DNA from: an uncultured Sulfolobales archaeon
Lineage (GTDB): Archaea > Thermoproteota > Thermoprotei_A > Sulfolobales > NBVN01
Direction: 5' to 3'
DNA: 64,000 bases
Assembly (NCBI GenBank): GCA_938073905.1
Contig: CALJEN010000002.1
Span: forward strand, 113,615 to 177,614
The position numbers and the translations under genes were made by a program. Shown here piece by piece: positions 1,711 through 33,798 of this stretch. Every line of letters starts with the position of its first letter. Position 1 is the stretch's first letter. Under the pieces are notes generated by a model. That model ran no database searches. It was not told where the DNA came from and saw only the letters and a program-made list of their open reading frames with translations.

Positions 1711-1808
1711 GAGAGCCCAGGATGTGGGGAGCCTCCCGTTGCCCCCGAAGGCCACCGAGGCCTCCACGGCCGAGGTGTAACGCGTAGCTACCGCTCGGCA
1801 GCTACGCG
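1711..1808 (+). mobile_element. Relic of TnpB 3' end plus right-end hairpin of IS200/IS605/IS607-type element
   Basis: gagagcccaggatgtggggagcctcccgttgcccccgaaggccaccgaggcctcc... matches the tnpB 3' end at 20710-20830 (reverse strand); terminal hairpin gcgtagct/agctacgc. Confidence 0.8.
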
Positions 1809-1899
1809 ATACTCCATGGAAACGGAGAGGCCTCTTACGCCGTGCGACGCCGCGCCCGTAGCTTACGTGCAAAGCATGGAGAGCCTCTCCCGTAATGCG

Positions 1900-14017: not shown

Positions 14018-15000
14018 CTGAGCCTCACCCTCGGGTCTAGGTACGCGTAGAGCAGGTCGACCACGTAGTTGGCGACCAGGAAGGCGACCAGGATCAGTAT
14101 GAAGAGCCCCTGGAGCAGCGGGTAGTCCCTGGTCGAGACTGCCTCGAACATCAGGCGGCCGAGCCCCTCCCACGAGAACACGGTCTCGGTCATGACGGCT
14201 CCGGAGAATATCCCCGCGAGCTGGAGCCCCACGATGGTCACGAAGGGGGGCATCGCCGCCCTGAAGACGTGCCTCCTCACGACGGCGCTCTCGCTGAGCC
14301 CCTTGGCCCTGGCCACGTAGACGAAGTCCTCCTGGAGTATGGAGAGCATGGCGTTCCTCACTATGAGGAAGTTGTAGCCCAGCTGTATCAGGGTGAGGAC
14401 TACGAAGGGGAGGGTCATGTGCCACAGGTAGTCCGCGAGCAGGTCGAGGAACCCCTCGTGCGCCCTCGTGGCCGTGATCGTCCCGCCCACGGGGAAGAGC
14501 CTCAGGTTGACCGAGAAGAGCATTATCAGCATCATCCCGAGCCAGAAGGTGGGTATCGAGTAGGTCACCAGGGAGAATGCCGTGAGAGAGGAGTCCACCC
14601 TGGACCCGTACCTCCTGATCGACAGGAGAGCCATGGCGAGCCCCACGGCTATCGCGGCGGCCGTCGAGGAGCCCACGAGGGCCAGGGTGTTCAGCATCCT
14701 CCTGCCGAAGATGATCTCGACCACGGGCCTCCCGTAGTAGAGGGAGTAGCCCAGCTCACCGGTCAACACGTTGGCCATGTAGACGAAGAACTGCTCGTGG
14801 AGGGGTCTGTCCAGTCCGAGCCTCCTCCTGAGGAGCTCCCTGGTGAGCGGGTGTATCCTGGGGCTCTCGAGGAGGAAGGCCGTGGGGTCTCCCGGCATGA
14901 CCCGGAAGAGGAAGAAGGCTATGCTGACGAGGATGAAAAAAGACGCTAGGGTTTGGGCCGCCCTCGCGGCGGCGTACCTGGGCAGTCCCACGGCGGCCAC
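14014..15000 (-). CDS. ABC transporter permease (DppB-like)
   Basis: MPGDPTAFLLESPRIHPLTRELLRRRLGLDRPLHEQFFVYMANVLTGELGYSLYYGRPVVEII; ARAKGLSESAVVRRHVFRAAMPPFVTIVG. Confidence 0.92.
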   Translation of the reverse strand: MAAVGLPRYAAARAAQTLASFFILVSIAFFLFRVMPGDPTAFLLESPRIHPLTRELLRRRLGLDRPLHEQFFVYMANVLTGELGYSLYYGRPVVEIIFGRRMLNTLALVGSSTAAAIAVGLAMALLSIRRYGSRVDSSLTAFSLVTYSIPTFWLGMMLIMLFSVNLRLFPVGGTITATRAHEGFLDLLADYLWHMTLPFVVLTLIQLGYNFLIVRNAMLSILQEDFVYVARAKGLSESAVVRRHVFRAAMPPFVTIVGLQLAGIFSGAVMTETVFSWEGLGRLMFEAVSTRDYPLLQGLFILILVAFLVANYVVDLLYAYLDPRVRLR

Positions 15001-15003
15001 CGC

Positions 15004-16962
15004 CTACTTGGTCGTCCTCCTCCCCACGAAGTACATCAGGACGCCGACGATCACCACCGCGGCTACCGCAGCGGCCACCGCCTCGGGTGGCGTGGTGGGC
15101 ACCTCGACCCGGACTGTGTGAGTGACGACGTGGGTCACGGGCAGGGTGGCGGTCACGGTCACGGTCACCGTGGCCACCTCCGCGACCGGCGGAGGCGGAG
15201 TGACCACTGGCGGCACCAGCTCCGTGTAGGGCAGCTCCGGTGGAAGCCCCCTGAAGTTCCCGTTTATCAGAGTCCAGAAGTTCAGTGCCCCGCCGGGCAT
15301 ATCGACCACACCCGAGAGCTCCCTCCTGTACACCTGTATCCAGAACCTCACGTAGATCGGCAGGATCGGTAGCTCCTCGGCCAGCACGGCCTGGAGCTGC
15401 TTGTACATCCTGGCCCTGGCGGACTCGTCCGGCTCGGCCTCGGCCCTCCTCAGCAGCTCCTCGAACTCCTTGTCCACGAAGCCCCACGGGTTGTTCCCAC
15501 CGGGCACAGCCTGCTCCTCGACGTAGAAGGCCGAGTAGTACCAGGGCGCGAAGTTCGCGTCGTTCTCGATTATGTACATATGGAACCTGAGCTGGTTGTA
15601 GACGTAGTCGACCATCGTGTCGAAGTCCAGGGGGACGTTCTTGGCCCTGACCCCTATCTTGGCCAGGTTCTCGACGAGTATATCTCCTATCCTCACCCTG
15701 ACCGGGTCGTACTCGGGAGTGTATATCGTGACCTCGAACCTCTCGCCGGTCGGGGACTCCCTCCACCCGTCCCCGTCGACGTCCCTGAAGCCGGCCTCGT
15801 CGAGCAGCCTGGCCGCCTCGGAGAGGTCGAAGTCGTAGCTAGGCACGTCTGGGTTGACCCAGAACCTGTAGCCCGGGTGGACGAACGTGTGGACCTTCTC
15901 TGCGTAGCCGAGCATCAGGACGCTGACAACAAAGTTTTTGTCGAGAGCGTGCGCCACAGCCTTCCTGAAGTTCTTGTTCCCGGTTATCGGGTCCCTCAGG
16001 TTGAACCCCAGGAACCCCACGTAGACGTCCGGGCTCTTGGGGACCACGAGGGTCGGGTCCCTCGAGGCCTCCTCGAGGACTGCGTAGGGAGCCGTCCACA
16101 TCATTACGTGGGCGTCCCCCCTCTTGACGGCCAGGTACTGGGCCTCATCGGTCGCGTACACCTTGAATACGAGCCTCTGGGCCCTCGGGAAGCCGGGCTT
16201 GAAGTACACCGGGTGCCTGACCAAGTCCAGGAGCTCCCCCTCGACCCACCTCGCCAGGGCGTAGGGCCCGGAGCCTATCCTGAGGTGCCCGTACCTGTTC
16301 ACGAAGTCCCTGGTCTTCGAGGCCACGTCCGCGGGCTCCCCCACCTCTATCCTCCCCAAGACCCTGGCCACGTCCGCCGAGCTCAGCGGGTTGAAGTGGG
16401 TCGGGTCTTCGAAGACCTCCTCTACGTGAGACCAGACGTGCCTGGGCAGGATGATCATGGTCCCGAAAGTCCTCAGTATCCAGGCGCTGAACCTCGACAG
16501 GTAGACCCTGACCGTGTACCTGTCGACGAGCTCGATCCTGTCGACGAACTCCACGCTCGGGTACCAGGACGGGGGCTGGTGCCTCCTGTAGAACTCCACT
16601 GTGAAGACGAGGTCCTCAGCGGTGATGGGGTTCCCGTCGTGCCAGTAGGCGTTCTCGACTATCCTGAACGTCCAGACCATGCCGTCGGGGCTGTGCTCGT
16701 AGTAGGAGCAGAGCCACGGATGCGGCTCGAGGTCTGGCCCCTCCCTGAAGAGCCTGTCGTAGGTCACCAGGTTCAGCCACCAGTCGTACCACGTCTCCTC
16801 CTTGAGGGGGTTCGGGTTCTTTATGTACTTCATCGAGGCCACTATGAGGGTCTCCTCGGCCTGGCCCACCGACAGCATCGGTAGCACAGTCCCCAGGGCT
16901 AGCAGCGCTAGGAGCGCGAGGGGGGCTATGCTACTGAAAGCTTTGGCGCTCAGAGTTGCCAC
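15004..16962 (-). CDS. Family 5 solute-binding protein with C-terminal membrane anchor
   Basis: AYWHDGNPITAEDLVFTVEFY...GSGPYALARW...LGFNLRDPITGNKNFRKAVAHALDKNFVV; C-terminal TM before RRTTK. Confidence 0.9.
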   Translation of the reverse strand: MATLSAKAFSSIAPLALLALLALGTVLPMLSVGQAEETLIVASMKYIKNPNPLKEETWYDWWLNLVTYDRLFREGPDLEPHPWLCSYYEHSPDGMVWTFRIVENAYWHDGNPITAEDLVFTVEFYRRHQPPSWYPSVEFVDRIELVDRYTVRVYLSRFSAWILRTFGTMIILPRHVWSHVEEVFEDPTHFNPLSSADVARVLGRIEVGEPADVASKTRDFVNRYGHLRIGSGPYALARWVEGELLDLVRHPVYFKPGFPRAQRLVFKVYATDEAQYLAVKRGDAHVMMWTAPYAVLEEASRDPTLVVPKSPDVYVGFLGFNLRDPITGNKNFRKAVAHALDKNFVVSVLMLGYAEKVHTFVHPGYRFWVNPDVPSYDFDLSEAARLLDEAGFRDVDGDGWRESPTGERFEVTIYTPEYDPVRVRIGDILVENLAKIGVRAKNVPLDFDTMVDYVYNQLRFHMYIIENDANFAPWYYSAFYVEEQAVPGGNNPWGFVDKEFEELLRRAEAEPDESARARMYKQLQAVLAEELPILPIYVRFWIQVYRRELSGVVDMPGGALNFWTLINGNFRGLPPELPYTELVPPVVTPPPPVAEVATVTVTVTATLPVTHVVTHTVRVEVPTTPPEAVAAAVAAVVIVGVLMYFVGRRTTK

Positions 16963-20136: not shown

Positions 20137-20709
20137 GTGCAGTCCGTGCTGTCCAGGAGCGAGGCTCTCGAGCTGCTGAGGAGGTACCTCAAGGACGAGA
20201 GGATGGTCAAGCACTGCCTGGCCGTCGGGACCATAATGAGGGCTCTCGGGGAGAGGCTCAGAGAGGACGCGGCCCTCTGGGAGCTCGTCGGACTGCTCCA
20301 CGACATCGACTACGACTACGTGGGCAGAGACATGAAGAGACACGGCCTGGGGGCCCTCGAGATACTCCGAGGGCTCTTCCCCCAGGAGGCCCTCGAGGCC
20401 ATAGCGGCCCACAACGAGCACAACGGGTTCAGGCCGACGGCGGAGGGGACGCTCAGGATACTCCACGCACTGAGGGCCTCCGACCACATGGCCGGCCTCG
20501 CGGTCGCGACCGCCCTCGTGATGCCCAGCAAGAGGCTGGCGGAGGTCAGGCCCGAGACTCTAGCGAGGAAGTTCAAGGCCAAGGACTTCGCCAGGGGGGT
20601 CGACAGGGAGAGGATAAGGGAGGTCGAGAGGCTGGGTCTGAGCCTGGAGGAGTTCTTCGCTATCGGGCTCGAGGCCCTCAGGGGGATAGCGGGCGAGCTC
20701 GGGCTCTAG
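20137..20709 (+). CDS. HDIG/HD-domain hydrolase
   Basis: DERMVKHCLAVGTIMRALGERLREDAALWELVGLLHDIDYDYVG...AAHNEHNG. Confidence 0.9.
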   Translation: MQSVLSRSEALELLRRYLKDERMVKHCLAVGTIMRALGERLREDAALWELVGLLHDIDYDYVGRDMKRHGLGALEILRGLFPQEALEAIAAHNEHNGFRPTAEGTLRILHALRASDHMAGLAVATALVMPSKRLAEVRPETLARKFKAKDFARGVDRERIREVERLGLSLEEFFAIGLEALRGIAGELGL

Positions 20710-21668
20710 CCGTTGTCGCGTAGTCGACACTTTATGACTACGCGTTCCACCTCGGCCCAGGAGGCCTCGGTGGCCTTCGGGGGCAACGGAGGCTCCCCAC
20801 ATCCTGGGGCTCTCCTCAGCAGGTTCAGGCAGGCGATCACATCCCTATCGCTCTCGTAACCGCACCTCCCGCACCTCGAGACCCTGCGCCCATTCGGTGC
20901 TAGCCTCCCACCGCATACCGGGCACAGGGTGGAGCTATGCTTCGGGTCCACGTAGACGACGGGCAGCCCGACCAGCCGAGCCTTGTACTCTACGTAGAAC
21001 TGGAGCCTCCTGAACGGTAGCGAGTGGAGCCTCCTGTTCATTCTCTTACTGCGTCTTATCCGCGCTCTGATGTGCTTCAGGTCCTCCAGGACTATCCCGA
21101 GTCCGTGCTGTTTGGCGAACTCCACGAGCCTCCTGGAGAGCTTGTGGAGCAGGTCTCTGACCCTGTTCCTCTCGCGCTCGGAGTACTTGGCCATCAGCCT
21201 CTCGGAGGTCTTAGGTTTGCGCTTGGAGAGCTCCTGTATCCTCCGCCTCTTCTCGAAGTACGCGCTCCTGATCTCCCTGAGGTTGGTCTCGAACCTCAGG
21301 ACGTGCGAGTCGGTGCTGACCGCCGTTACGTTCGTCTCGTTCACGTCCACAGCGATCCAACCCCTCGGCTCTACCTGGGCCGTTGCTTTCTTGAACGGGA
21401 TGTAGACCCCGGTTCCGTTTACGACGATCTCCCCGACCTCCAGCTTCCCGGCTCTCCACTCCTCGATGAGCCTCCTCTGGTAGTCCCCGTACTTCAGCCG
21501 AATGTAGAGGAACTCTCTAGGCTTGACAGATATCCTGACCGCGTCGCCCTGGTACCTCACCAGAAACGGGTCCAGCCTCATGAAGAGCTTCTCGGCGACC
21601 GGTCTATCGCCTTTGGCCAGACCTCTGCGCTTGAGCCTCCTGAAGCCCTTGACCATCGAGACGGCCAC
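20706..21668 (-). CDS. tnpB: TnpB RNA-guided nuclease-like protein (no adjacent dedicated tnpA)
   Basis: RuvC-like AVDVNETNVTAV (D), IVLEDLKHI (E), CPVCGGRLAPNGRRVSRCGRCGYESDRDVIACLNLL (Zn finger plus D). Confidence 0.95.
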   Translation of the reverse strand: MAVSMVKGFRRLKRRGLAKGDRPVAEKLFMRLDPFLVRYQGDAVRISVKPREFLYIRLKYGDYQRRLIEEWRAGKLEVGEIVVNGTGVYIPFKKATAQVEPRGWIAVDVNETNVTAVSTDSHVLRFETNLREIRSAYFEKRRRIQELSKRKPKTSERLMAKYSERERNRVRDLLHKLSRRLVEFAKQHGLGIVLEDLKHIRARIRRSKRMNRRLHSLPFRRLQFYVEYKARLVGLPVVYVDPKHSSTLCPVCGGRLAPNGRRVSRCGRCGYESDRDVIACLNLLRRAPGCGEPPLPPKATEASWAEVERVVIKCRLRDNG

Positions 21669-23556
21669 TCGGCACGCTGAGTGGCAGAAGTGGGTTCGGA
21701 TGCAGTTCCTGGACAGTAAACCTTATATACCCCTTCCCAACACTATATAATAACGGAGGAGCGTGGAGAAGCTACTGAGGCTCAGCGAGGCCTGCAGGAG
21801 GCTGGGAATTCACCCGAACACTCTTAGGAAGTGGGAGAAGCAGGGGAAGATACGTGTCGTCAGGACTCCCGGCGGCAGGAGGAGGATACCGGAGAGCGAG
21901 GTAGAGCGGCTTTTGGGCATGGCAGGAGCGGGCGTGGGGAGGAGGGCCGTAGTGTACGCCAGGGTCTCCTCTCACGACCAGAAGCAGAGGGGAGACCTGG
22001 AGAGGCAGAAGCAGGCCCTGCTAGAGTACGCTAGAACGAGAGGATACGAGGTCGTAGCAGTCCTGGAGGACGTGGCGAGCGGGCTAAACGAGGATAGAAA
22101 ATCGTTGAGCAGGCTCTTCGACATGGTCGACAGAAGAGAGGTCGACGTGGTCGTCGTCGGGTTCAGGGACAGGCTCACCAGGTTCGGGTTCAAGTACTTG
22201 GAGCGGTACTTCGCTTCGCACGGAGTCAGGATCGAGGTGGTCGAGGGCGAGGAGCCTAAGGAGGCCTACCAAGAGCTCGTTGAAGACCTGATCGCCCTAG
22301 TCACGAGCTTCGCCGGGAAGCTCTACGGAACGGGGAGCCGCAAGTACAAGAGGGTGGTCGAGGGTGTCAAACAGCTTGTTGCTGACTGAGACGTGCAGGT
22401 TCAGGCTCGAGCCCAGCGAGGAGCAGAGGCGCGTGCTGGAGGAGCTCTTCGAAGCCTACGCGGGAATGGTTAGAGAGTGCCTGGAGAAGGCGATAGAGCT
22501 GAACGCGACTTCCAGGAAGAAACTACACGAAGCGGTCTACAGGGAGCTGAGGGCCAGGTTCCCGAACTACCCCTCCCACTACATCTACACGGCTATAACG
22601 ATGGCCCTGGCTATATTCAAATCATACAGGAGAATGTCGAGGAAGAAGAGGGACGTTAGTAAACCTAGCGCTAAAAACCTGAACACCGTCCTCCTGGACG
22701 ATACGCACCTCTTCTGGTTCAGGTGGGGGGAGGTGAGGCTGGCTACCCACAGGGGACACGTAGCGATACCCTTTAAAGTCCACGAGCACGCCAGGAAGTT
22801 CGTCGACTTCCAAGTGAAGGGGTCGAGGCTCGTGAGGAGGGGGGACGCGTTCTTCCTGCACGTGACTTTCAGAAAGACCGTCGAGGAGAGGGAGGCCGAG
22901 GGCGTCCTGGGCATAGACGTCAACGAGAGGAGCATAGACCTCGCCATAGTCAAGCCCGGCTACGTGAAATTCGTTAGGGTAGACGTAAGCGAGGTCAAGT
23001 ACATCAGGGACAGGTACTTTAGGAAGAGGAGGAGCATCCAGAAGAAGACGTCGGGGAAAACGAGGGCCGGACTGCTGGCGAAGTACTCTGAGAGGGAGAG
23101 GAGGAGGGTCGACGCGTTGCTCCACAGGGCGTCGAAGATCGTGGCGGACATCGTGGCTAGGGAGAGGGTCAGGCCCGTCATGGAGGACCTCAGAGGCATC
23201 AGGGAGAGGATCGACTACGGGAGGGTGCTCAACAGGAGGCTCCACAGCATGCCGTTCAGGAGGATCCAGTTCTACATCGCCTACAAGTCTGTGGAGAGGG
23301 GCTACAGACCGGTGTACGTCGACCCGGAGAACAGCTCTAGGGCGTGCCCGATATGTGGCGCGGTTAACAAGCCGAATGGGCACGCCTACAAATGCGGAAA
23401 GTGCGGGCTCCAGGCGGACAGGCACCAGGTCGCCGCCTGGAACCTGGCTACGAGACACCCGATGTGGGGTGCTTTACCGTTGCCCCCGAAGGCCACCGAG
23501 GCCTCCTGGGCCGAGGTGGAACGCGTAGTCATAAAGTGTCGACTACGCGACAACGG
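20710..23556. mobile_element. Composite IS607/IS605-like unit: tnpB(-) / tnpA-tnpB(+) with 80-bp perfect inverted ends
   Basis: 20710-20789 and 23477-23556 are exact reverse complements of each other over 80 nt. Confidence 0.85.
21763..22389 (+). CDS. tnpA: IS607-family serine recombinase TnpA (MerR-type HTH plus resolvase)
   Basis: RLSEACRRLGIHPNTLRKWEKQGKIRVVRTPGGRRRIPESEV then AVVYARVSSHDQKQRGDLERQKQAL. Confidence 0.95.
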   Translation: MEKLLRLSEACRRLGIHPNTLRKWEKQGKIRVVRTPGGRRRIPESEVERLLGMAGAGVGRRAVVYARVSSHDQKQRGDLERQKQALLEYARTRGYEVVAVLEDVASGLNEDRKSLSRLFDMVDRREVDVVVVGFRDRLTRFGFKYLERYFASHGVRIEVVEGEEPKEAYQELVEDLIALVTSFAGKLYGTGSRKYKRVVEGVKQLVAD

Positions 23557-23614
23557 TCTCTCACCCTCTTCCTGTAGGGATAGTCCCCGTAGTTCTCGAC
23601 TATCACCCCCGTGA
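22364..23614 (+). CDS. tnpB: TnpB (IS607-associated)
   Basis: GIDVNERSIDLAIV, VMEDLRGI, CPICGAVNKPNGHAYKCGKCGLQADRHQVAAWNLA. The frame continues ~58 nt past the right end (23556) into flanking DNA. Confidence 0.93.
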   Translation: MSNSLLLTETCRFRLEPSEEQRRVLEELFEAYAGMVRECLEKAIELNATSRKKLHEAVYRELRARFPNYPSHYIYTAITMALAIFKSYRRMSRKKRDVSKPSAKNLNTVLLDDTHLFWFRWGEVRLATHRGHVAIPFKVHEHARKFVDFQVKGSRLVRRGDAFFLHVTFRKTVEEREAEGVLGIDVNERSIDLAIVKPGYVKFVRVDVSEVKYIRDRYFRKRRSIQKKTSGKTRAGLLAKYSERERRRVDALLHRASKIVADIVARERVRPVMEDLRGIRERIDYGRVLNRRLHSMPFRRIQFYIAYKSVERGYRPVYVDPENSSRACPICGAVNKPNGHAYKCGKCGLQADRHQVAAWNLATRHPMWGALPLPPKATEASWAEVERVVIKCRLRDNGLSPSSCRDSPRSSRLSPP

Positions 23615-26027: not shown

Positions 26028-26038
26028 ATATCTTTAAC

Positions 26039-26192
26039 CGTCGCCGCGCAGCTGCCGAGCGGTAGCTACGCGCTCCGCCTCGGCTGCCCCCGGGGGCGAC
26101 GGTGGAGCGCCCCGCGTGCCTCGCGCTCGCCGGCGGTCCCTCTGCCCTCTGTCACTACGCATAGAGGTTAGCCGTTTAGGAGCTGCTGGCAA
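26039..26192 (-). repeat. MITE-like nonautonomous element derived from TnpB right end (copy 1)
   Basis: Reverse complement shares CAGCAGCTCCTAAAC, CCGCCGGCGAGCGCGAGGCACGCGGGGCGCTCCACCGTCGCCCCCGGGGGCAGCCGAGGCGGAGCGCGTAGCTACCGCTCGGCAGCTGCGCGGCG with the copy at 33.4 kb. Confidence 0.85.
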
Positions 26193-28836: not shown

Positions 28837-28916
28837 CACGCGGGGCGCTCCACCGTCGCCCCCGGGGGCAGCCGAGGCGGAGCGCGTAGCTACCGCTCGG
28901 CAGCTGCGCGGCGACG
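28837..28916 (+). repeat. MITE-like element derived from TnpB right end (copy 2, left-truncated)
   Basis: cacgcggggcgctccaccgtcgcccccgggggcagccgaggcggagcgcgtagctaccgctcggcagctgcgcggcga matches copies at 26.1 and 33.5 kb. Confidence 0.85.
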
Positions 28917-30011
28917 GTAGACGAGGACGCGGTGCGGTGGGACGTAGAGCCTGACGAAGGTGCCTACGGACACCCTCGCGTCCGTGGGCAGGAACAGCAG
29001 GACCTCCCAGGGCCCGACGTCGACCCTCACCTCGAGCCTCTCCCCCAGGTACGAGACGGCGACGACCCTGCCCGAGAACACATTGTCTCCCGAGACCCCG
29101 TCGAGGCTGGCACTGTGGGGCCTGAAGACCGCGTAGACCTCGTCGCCCGGGGAGGGTCTGGTGCCCCCGGTGGGCACCACGCCTCTGATCCTGAGCCCCC
29201 GGGACTCGACGGTCACGTAGCCCTCCGAGGCCTCGGCGACCGAGCCCTCCAGCAGGTTGCACTTTCCCAGGAACGTCGCTACGAAGAGGCTGCCGGGCCT
29301 CTCGTAGAGCTCCTCGGGAGTGCCGACCTGGACTACCCTGCCCGAGTTCATCACGGCCACCCTGTCCGACAGCACCATCGCCTCCTCCTGGTCGTGCGTG
29401 ACGTAGACCGCGGTTATGCCGAGCCTCCTCTGCAGCCTCCTGATCTCCTCCCTCATCTCCACCCTCAGTCTAGCGTCCAGGTTGCTCAGGGGCTCGTCGA
29501 GGAGCAGGACTCTCGGCTCGACGACCAGAGCCCTGGCCAGCGCGACCCTCTGCTGCTGGCCCCCGGAGAGCTGGGTCGGGTACCTATCCTCCAGGCCCTC
29601 GAGCCTCACGAGCTCCAGGACATCCCTGACCCTCCTGCGCACCTCCTCCCTGGGGAGCCTCCTGACCCTGAGGCCGTAGGCCACGTTCTCGAAGACCGTC
29701 ATGTGGGGCCAGAGGGCGTAGCTCTGGAAGACCATCGCGGTGCCGCGTCCGTAGGGCGGCTCGTTCGTGACGTCTCGCCCGTCTATGACGACCCTGCCCC
29801 TCTCCGGGGTCTCGAGCCCCGCCACTATCCTGAGGAGGGTGGTCTTTCCGCAGCCCGAGGGGCCCAGAAACGTGAAGAACTCCCCCCTCTCGACTCTGAC
29901 CGTGACCCCGTCAACCGCCACGACCCTGCCGAACCTCTTGGTGACGTCCACCAGCTCTACCGACGTCTCGGGCCCCCGCGAGCGGGTAGAGCTTATTCGT
30001 CTAAAAAGCAT
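28890..30011 (-). CDS. ABC transporter ATP-binding protein (MalK/PotA-like with TOBE)
   Basis: [76 protein letters not shown]-like C-terminus. Confidence 0.94.
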
Positions 30012-33404: not shown

Positions 33405-33568
33405 AGCAGCAGCTCCTAAACCAACCTCTCTGCGCGTAGTGCGTAGAGCGACCGCGGAGGGGTCGGGAGGGGCCGCCGGCGAGCGCGAGGCACGCGGGGC
33501 GCTCCACCGTCGCCCCCGGGGGCAGCCGAGGCGGAGCGCGTAGCTACCGCTCGGCAGCTGCGCGGCGG
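33405..33568 (+). repeat. MITE-like element derived from TnpB right end (copy 3, most complete)
   Basis: cagcagctcctaaac...ctctgcgcgtagtgcgtagag (left-end hairpin) ... gcgtagctaccgctcggcagctgcgc (right-end hairpin). Confidence 0.85.
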
Positions 33569-33798
33569 TCGCCATCCGTTCGACCCGGAGCCCCTTCACG
33601 ACAACGGGCGCTCCATCGGGAGAACCCGCTCTCTCGAGCCCCCGCGGAGAGCACCGATGGAGGTTCCAGGGCCGGGCGCTGCCGGGCCCGCAGGATCCGC
33701 GTCGGCGAGGACCCGCTCCGCCGAACCGGGACTCGGAAACTGACTCCAAATCCTGGAAAGATTTATTAACTCGCTGCCAGAATCTCTTGGAGTGAACT

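What the first reader, a model, noticed from the sequence alone, without database searches (positions are those of the whole stretch)
20710..23556. Two divergent TnpBs share an 80/80-identical 3' end, forming a composite unit with perfect 80-bp inverted termini
20710-20789 and 23477-23556 are exact reverse complements, while the bodies of the two TnpB proteins are clearly diverged. Both proteins end in PLPPKATEASWAEVERVVIKCRLRDNG. In known IS200/IS605 and IS607 systems the 3' end of tnpB plus the right end encodes the omega (guide) RNA scaffold. Identity at nucleotide level across two otherwise divergent nucleases suggests selection or conversion on a shared guide RNA scaffold or transposition end. 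A single serine recombinase gene sits in the middle. This may be a mobile unit carrying two RNA-guided nucleases that use one scaffold type, with two guides reading into opposite flanks.
Basis: partly seen in the sequence, partly recalled or inferred. Interest (0 to 1): 0.75.

Follow-up and report, generated by a model that had tools for sequence, protein, structure and literature searches.

The report
Archaeal IS607 transposons sharing guide-RNA ends
One archaeal transposon has jumped into another, and the identical 80-base ends that were noticed are the guide-RNA scaffold of a whole transposon family, which this genome carries about 37 times, many of them in tiny elements that look like promoter plus guide RNA with no protein gene.

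Summary
The 80/80 inverted identity is real, but it is not a composite transposon's terminal repeat. The unit is a nested insertion. A complete IS607-type element (21693-23556: left end, serine recombinase tnpA, tnpB2, right end) sits at a GG target inside the tnpB1 gene of a second, opposite element. Its 5' part and ~640 bp of the host btpA gene are lost. The 80 bp is the family's right end. It folds as a three-way junction, with compensatory changes across archaeal phyla, and is best read as the 3' domain of the TnpB guide (omega) RNA. A second conserved hairpin lies ~90 bp upstream in tnpB2. The bodies of TnpB1 and TnpB2 are 37% identical, yet both ends are nearly identical in this genome and differ from those of their orthologues elsewhere, so the ends have been exchanged or homogenised within the genome. 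A covariance model finds 37 copies here, one in a single sister species, none in the other five congeners. Eight are 219-228-bp elements (93-99% identical) holding only a left end with TATA box, the upstream hairpin and the junction. One has an exact empty site in the sister species. Similar tnpB-less elements occur in two distant archaea. They may be stand-alone guide-RNA genes; expression was not testable.

The parts
20137..20709 (+). Host HD-domain gene; left flank. Its last 20 nt (20690-20709, minus strand) would be the guide of right end 1
   Evidence: Pfam HD; orthologues in six congeners, next to btpA in G006 and G005
20710..20789 (-). Right end 1 = three-way-junction domain of the proposed guide RNA of the tnpB1 element
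   Evidence: exact copy of 23477-23556; covariance model 106.5 bits
20706..21692 (-). Remnant of element 1: tnpB1, 5'-truncated (ORF 20706-21668, 320 aa, stop codon supplied by the flank)
   Evidence: 93% nt identity to the intact tnpB1 of L032, which continues upstream; Cas12f1-like_TNB
20879..20930 (-). Upstream hairpin (SL0) of tnpB1: CTGTGCCC..GGGCGCAG
   Evidence: covariation
21693..23556 (+). Complete IS607-type element (element 2), GG to GG, inserted in antisense in tnpB1 at a GGG target
   Evidence: left end GGTTCGG..., right end ...CAACGG; target GGGT inferred from L032 and L061
21723..21729 (+). TATA-like promoter box in the left end, ahead of tnpA
   Evidence: sequence; TATA-like box in most left ends examined
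21763..22389 (+). tnpA, IS607-type serine recombinase with N-terminal MerR-like HTH
   Evidence: Pfam Resolvase, HTH_17, MerR; up to 78% id in other archaea
22364..23556 (+). tnpB2; RuvC residues D185, E274, D352 and zinc ribbon intact; frame has no stop inside the element and runs to 23614
   Evidence: Pfam; PDB TnpB/Cas12f hits; alignment
23341..23386 (+). Upstream hairpin (SL0) of tnpB2: GGCGTGCCC..GGGCACGCC, in the zinc-ribbon codons
23477..23556 (+). Right end 2 = three-way-junction domain of the proposed guide RNA
   Evidence: fold z = -4.6; covariation
23557..23576 (+). Predicted guide of right end 2; matches btpA
   Evidence: position immediately 3' of the right end; native site in L061
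23557..23750 (-). N-terminal remnant of host btpA; about 640 bp between here and the HD stop are missing relative to G006
1736..1819 (+). Older tnpB-less copy (tnpB1-type upstream context)
26038..26102 (-). Short right-end copy lacking the upstream hairpin
28853..28917 (+). Short right-end copy, identical to 26038-26102
33507..33571 (+). Short right-end copy downstream of a tRNA-like sequence

Best explanation
The locus is one IS607-family transposon nested in another. The 80-bp repeat is their common right end, which doubles as the 3' domain of the TnpB guide RNA. TnpA, the serine recombinase of element 2, moves every element bearing these ends by exchange at GG: the tnpA-tnpB2 element, tnpB1 elements that were found without tnpA, and miniature tnpB-less elements. 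Each right end puts the next ~16-20 nt of host DNA behind the scaffold as a guide. TnpB loaded with it should cut the empty site, which carries GGG immediately 5' of the target, and so favour restoration of the element. Because both TnpB lineages share ends in one genome, the ends have been exchanged or converted between them. This gives 80/80 identity over proteins that are 37% identical. Shown here: nesting, boundaries, a clean empty site, family spread, conserved RNA structure, exchange of ends. Inferred: transcription, TnpB binding, cutting, use of one scaffold by both TnpBs, trans mobilisation.
For: Nesting: LE2 begins at GGTTCGG exactly where the 93% match to intact tnpB1 stops. btpA resumes exactly after CAACGG with GG|TCTCTCACC, as in G006 and G005, and HD-btpA adjacency in those congeners makes a chimeric join unlikely. 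IS607 chemistry: GG termini, GGG before 11 of 11 left ends of tnpB-less copies, and T after nearly all right ends; empty site of the L005 element in G006, 93% over 601 bp, no gap, no target duplication, as published for IS607 (PMC6188088). RNA: fold z -4.6, 0 of 200 shuffles as good; 14 of 24 pairs with changes on both sides, 93% of cells paired against 27-48% when slid, 0 of 500 shuffles; upstream hairpin 90% paired, 31 compensatory cells, 0 of 500. Exchange: right ends of tnpB1 and tnpB2 99-100% identical in G000, whereas tnpB1 of G000 and G034 share 60% protein but 73-75% right end; left ends 55 of 56. Nuclease: RuvC triad and zinc ribbon kept, PDB hits to TnpB and Cas12f.
Against: No transcript data. 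No Rfam family matches at a meaningful score. The tnpB frame runs through the 80 bp, so part of the conservation in autonomous copies could be protein-level. Several miniature copies have lost the upstream hairpin, so the complete RNA is not needed for every copy's survival. The G000 assembly is 79% complete. One-step insertion does not explain the deletion; the second step (recombination between right-end copies, or a TnpA-mediated adjacent deletion) is not resolved.
Confidence: 0.82

Rival explanations
1. Extension of the best explanation: the tnpB-less miniature elements are stand-alone guide-RNA genes. The left-end promoter drives a ~160-nt RNA (upstream hairpin, linker hairpin, three-way junction) plus a site-specific guide, used in trans by TnpB1 or TnpB2. 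Each miniature element is thus both moved by TnpA and retained by TnpB.
For: Eight copies, 219-228 bp, 93-99% identical, TATA box 41-42 bp ahead of the hairpin in all eight. The stretch between hairpin and junction is deleted, which kills the ORF but leaves every RNA domain. Separate tnpB-less families in G038 (four copies) and Jordarchaeia G039 again start their tnpB-derived part at the hairpin TGCCCGATATGTGG. Among tnpB-less copies 94% of cells are still paired, with 14 compensatory cells, 0 of 500 shuffles.
Against: The tnpB-less-only covariation is modest: pairs with change on both sides 4, reached by 120 of 500 shuffles, and some variants may be inherited from different source elements. 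The young subfamily has one C-A mismatch in the upstream stem. 65-nt and ~80-bp copies lacking the hairpin also exist. No expression data.
Confidence: 0.45
2. The 80 bp is conserved only as a DNA end for TnpA; its folding is incidental and the miniature elements are ordinary MITEs.
For: Very short copies (about 80 bp) consisting mainly of left-end and right-end sequence exist in two sites of C10, so the right end is central to mobility. TnpA binds subterminal repeats (PMC6188088).
Against: A serine recombinase acts on duplex DNA and has no need of compensatory changes in three helices across phyla. The conserved upstream hairpin lies over 160 bp inside the element. The folded outer stem coincides exactly with the limits of the 80-bp identity.
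Confidence: 0.15
3. Composite mobile unit: 20710-23556 moves as a whole between its inverted 80-bp termini, carrying two nucleases.
For: Perfect 80-bp inverted ends; one recombinase inside.
Against: Both outer ends are right ends; left TnpB is truncated; IS607 has no terminal inverted repeats; the flanks are not an empty site of this unit, since ~640 bp of btpA are missing; the model finds no paired right ends in the other genus members.
Confidence: 0.03
4. Duplication of one element followed by divergence, with the end kept identical by selection alone.
For: Selection on the right end is evident.
Against: TnpB1 and TnpB2 are old lineages that each occur in other archaea. Within G000 even loop positions of the 80 bp agree, while orthologous right ends differ by about 25%, and tnpB-less copies differ from tnpB2 by 8%; selection alone would not restore loop identity.
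Confidence: 0.08

Closest known systems
IS607-family transposons (IS607, IS1535, ISC1926) with TnpA serine recombinase
   Same: tnpA-tnpB order, MerR-like HTH before the resolvase domain, GG at both ends, (G)GG target, no inverted repeats and no target duplication (PMC6188088)
   Different: Here one genome carries tnpA-tnpB2, tnpB1 elements without tnpA and dozens of tnpB-less copies on the same ends
IS607 TnpB with RAGATH-18-derived guide RNA (ISFba1)
   Same: TnpB with a structured RNA at its 3' end; G-rich TAM beside the left end (AGGAG or GAGGG, PMC11061315); here GGG
   Different: Different RNA fold: upstream hairpin in the zinc-ribbon codons and a closed three-way junction; the RNA overlaps the coding sequence; no Rfam match
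PATEs and IS605-derived miniature elements of Haloquadratum
   Same: Transposase-free archaeal elements with ends of TnpB transposons, no target duplication, outnumbering the full elements (PMC3119063)
   Different: Those derive from IS605-type elements (mobilised by a Y1 transposase, from general knowledge) and were described through near-terminal palindromes; the passages read do not assign a guide-RNA role
IS200/IS605-associated omega RNAs of archaea, including circular forms
   Same: Archaeal TnpB guide RNAs from tnpB 3' ends (PMC12558985, title and abstract)
   Different: IS605, not IS607; a term search found no mention of tnpB-less sources there

Membership tests
IS607 transposon family | Serine recombinase TnpA with N-terminal helix-turn-helix | tested here: met
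   Pfam Resolvase, HTH_17, MerR
IS607 transposon family | GG at both termini, exchange at GG, no target duplication | tested here: met
   empty site without gap in G006
IS607 transposon family | No terminal inverted repeats on a single element | tested here: met
   LE and RE of element 2 differ; the inverted 80-mers are two right ends
IS607 transposon family | TnpA-catalysed transposition | not testable with these tools
   inferred from empty sites only
TnpB RNA-guided nuclease | RuvC D-E-D triad and zinc ribbon | tested here: met
   D185, E274, D352 and CPxC/CxxC invariant; PDB TnpB and Cas12f hits
TnpB RNA-guided nuclease | Structured guide RNA ending at the right end, guide from flanking DNA | tested here: inconclusive
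   structure and covariation met; RNA itself not observed
TnpB RNA-guided nuclease | Cleavage next to a TAM that flanks the left end | not testable with these tools
   candidate TAM GGG from 11 of 11 sites
Composite transposon | Two end-bearing elements flanking cargo, mobile as one unit | tested here: not met
   no left end at 20710; tnpB1 truncated; flanks non-contiguous relative to congeners
Non-autonomous miniature element of the family (MITE/PATE-like) | Ends of the parent element, no transposase, multiple precise insertions | tested here: met

The most novel reading that the evidence does not exclude
A genome-wide set of tnpB-less miniature IS607 elements acts as a dispersed array of stand-alone guide-RNA genes, each with its own promoter and a guide acquired by insertion, all served in trans by two TnpB lineages that share one interchangeable scaffold.
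Probability: 0.4. Interest if true: 0.82.

Novelty: new variant of a known kind. Interest (0 to 1): 0.62.

Why it matters
If the miniature elements make guide RNA, TnpB is a shared genome resource and not a private helper of one transposon, and parasites of the transposon inherit both its mobility and its retention system. That would be a natural intermediate between one nuclease with one guide and a nuclease with a guide array. The system also offers a compact archaeal IS607 TnpB scaffold with strong covariation, a candidate GGG TAM, and natural swaps of the scaffold between TnpBs only 37% identical, which makes scaffold compatibility directly testable.

Tried and rejected
Composite transposon with inverted termini: rejected on anatomy and flanks. 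Recent whole-gene duplication: rejected by the identity profile. Mis-joined contig: made unlikely by HD-btpA adjacency in G006 and G005. Model R1 was built with a structure shifted by two columns and was discarded; R2 is correct. Rfam: only a 19-bit chance match. Viral contigs: no TnpB2 relative; 15 exact 16-mer matches had no three-way junction. Papers: searches for TnpB with MITE or non-autonomous elements found no description of IS607 miniature elements as guide-RNA sources in the held library; the key Nature 2023 paper on TnpB and selfish spread is not held, and I recall, unverified, that it discusses protein-less IS605 elements.

Full report
OBSERVATION. The inverted 80-mers are exact, and both frames end in the same 27 residues. 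Intact tnpB1 and tnpB2 share 31-57 of 80 nt per window after the unalignable start, then 79 of 80 in the last 80 nt. Over the protein body identity is 37-40%. The identity is therefore local and real.

NOT UNIQUE. A BLAST search of the window's own assembly (1.3 Mb, 79% complete) with the 80-mer gave 30 places. A covariance model built from 16 copies gave 37 at E <= 1e-3. Among 30 relatives only one congener (G006, one copy) and one weak hit (G012) were found. The window holds six copies. So the family has expanded in this one species.

ANATOMY OF THE UNIT. Element 2 runs from GG at 21693 to GG at 23556: left end with a TATA-like box, tnpA (serine recombinase with MerR-like HTH), tnpB2 with intact RuvC triad and zinc ribbon, and the right end. 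Its left end starts exactly where the similarity of the minus-strand tnpB1 to an intact copy (L032, 93%) stops. The target in tnpB1 is a GGGT. tnpB1 is therefore split by element 2. In G006 and G005 the HD gene is followed at once by btpA on the opposite strand. In the window the HD stop codon abuts right end 1, and btpA resumes at codon ~60 exactly after right end 2, at GG|TCTCTCACC, with ~638 bp missing. The simplest history is insertion of element 1 after the HD gene, insertion of element 2 into it, and loss of the intervening part. The loss may have come by recombination with another right end inserted in btpA or by a TnpA-mediated adjacent deletion. I could not choose between these.

TWO KINDS OF ELEMENT ON ONE PAIR OF ENDS. 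The intact tnpB1 element (L032) has a left end identical to that of element 2 at 55 of 56 positions, a ribbon-helix-helix gene (Pfam RHH_1), tnpB1 and the same right end, but no tnpA. In G034 and Terraquivivens G032, tnpB1 relatives sit directly behind a left end, again with no tnpA hit. tnpB2 relatives (60-72%) have tnpA upstream where enough upstream sequence is held, in MAGs labelled Nitrososphaeria, Bathyarchaeota, Jordarchaeia, Odinarchaeota and Methanomethylicales. Trans mobilisation of tnpB1 elements by the tnpB2 element's TnpA is the natural inference.

WHY 80 OF 80. In this genome the right ends of tnpB1 and tnpB2 are 99-100% identical and share a stem (CGCGTAGTC/GACTACGCG) not seen in the other genomes outside the genus, which have CGGATAGT/ACTATCCG. 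tnpB1 of G000 and of G034 are 60% identical as proteins, but their right ends are 73-75% identical. In G032 tnpB1 elements carry either the junction-type or a second type of right end. Right ends thus move between TnpB lineages. Selection on the RNA or end, plus recent exchange, explains the identity; selection alone does not.

RNA STRUCTURE. The 80-mer folds as a closed three-way junction (CCGTTG/CAACGG; CCACC-GA-GGCC/GGCC-GA-GGTGG; CGCGTAGTC/GACTACGCG), z = -4.6, no shuffle of 200 as stable. On an unfitted alignment of 40 copies from own and foreign genomes, 93% of cells pair, 14 of 24 pairs show changes on both sides, and no shuffle of 500 reaches any of the five measures; slid versions pair 27-48%. 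Upstream, in the zinc-ribbon codons, a second hairpin (GCGTGCCC..GGGCACGC here, CTGTGCCC..GGGCGCAG in tnpB1, ATATGCCC..GGGCATAT elsewhere) pairs in 90% of cells, with 31 compensatory cells, 0 of 500. Caveat: related sequences inflate shuffle tests.

MINIATURE ELEMENTS. Eight copies (219-228 bp, 93-99% identical) consist of the left end, a TATA box 41-42 bp ahead of the hairpin, the hairpin, a linker hairpin and the junction. The coding stretch between hairpin and junction is gone, and all frames have stops. All left ends examined are preceded by GGG, and nearly all right ends are followed by T. One copy (L005) has its exact empty site in G006: 93% over 601 bp, no gap, so no target duplication, and it interrupts a gene. 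G038 has four 0.4-0.5-kb tnpB-less copies and Jordarchaeia G039 one. In both, the tnpB-derived part starts at the same hairpin. This recurrent retention is the best evidence that the miniature elements preserve the RNA. Against it, older or shorter copies without the hairpin exist, and the covariation within tnpB-less copies alone is modest.

MECHANISM. Most likely, an RNA from each copy ends in the junction plus host flank, TnpB binds it, and the complex cuts the vacated site next to GGG. That matches the published G-rich TAMs of IS607 TnpBs (PMC11061315) and the (G)GG target of TnpA (PMC6188088). Demonstrated here: boundaries, empty site, structure conservation, exchange, absence of tnpA from the tnpB1 elements seen. 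Inferred: transcription, binding, cleavage, trans use.

VERDICT. Observation confirmed; composite-transposon reading not supported; shared-scaffold reading supported as far as sequence can show. The larger find is the swarm of tnpB-less elements that look like complete guide-RNA genes in an archaeal IS607 family.

Noticed in passing
L032:1549-3098 (G000:C3, near 14258-15900): An intact tnpB1 element carries a 121-aa protein with two ribbon-helix-helix-like repeats directly upstream of and overlapping tnpB1, in place of tnpA.
   Followed up: partly
window 23556-23614 and 20706-20709: The tnpB frames have no stop codon inside the junction-type right end; the stop is supplied by host DNA, so every insertion gives TnpB a different C-terminal tail.
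   Followed up: partly
L112, L114 (G032), L072, L074-L076, L078, L081, L082: A second type of right end shares the start CCGTTG and the end CAACGG but has a GGGAAGGGATGAAAGTCTATGAATCCC-like segment in place of the junction; tnpB1 elements of one genome carry either type.
   Followed up: no
window 26038-26102, 28853-28917, 33507-33571: Three short copies about 65 nt long, the first two identical and in inverted orientation 2.8 kb apart; the third lies just downstream of a tRNA-like sequence.
   Followed up: no
L026 (G000:C10:79267-79349 and 81380-81459): Two near-identical ~80-bp elements consisting of little more than left-end and right-end sequence, 2.1 kb apart.
   Followed up: no
L005:1360-1580: A miniature element interrupts a protein-coding gene that is intact in G006.
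   Followed up: yes
L035/L090 (G000:C3 end): A further, diverged tnpA (54%) and partial tnpB at a contig end: a second IS607 lineage in the same genome.
   Followed up: no
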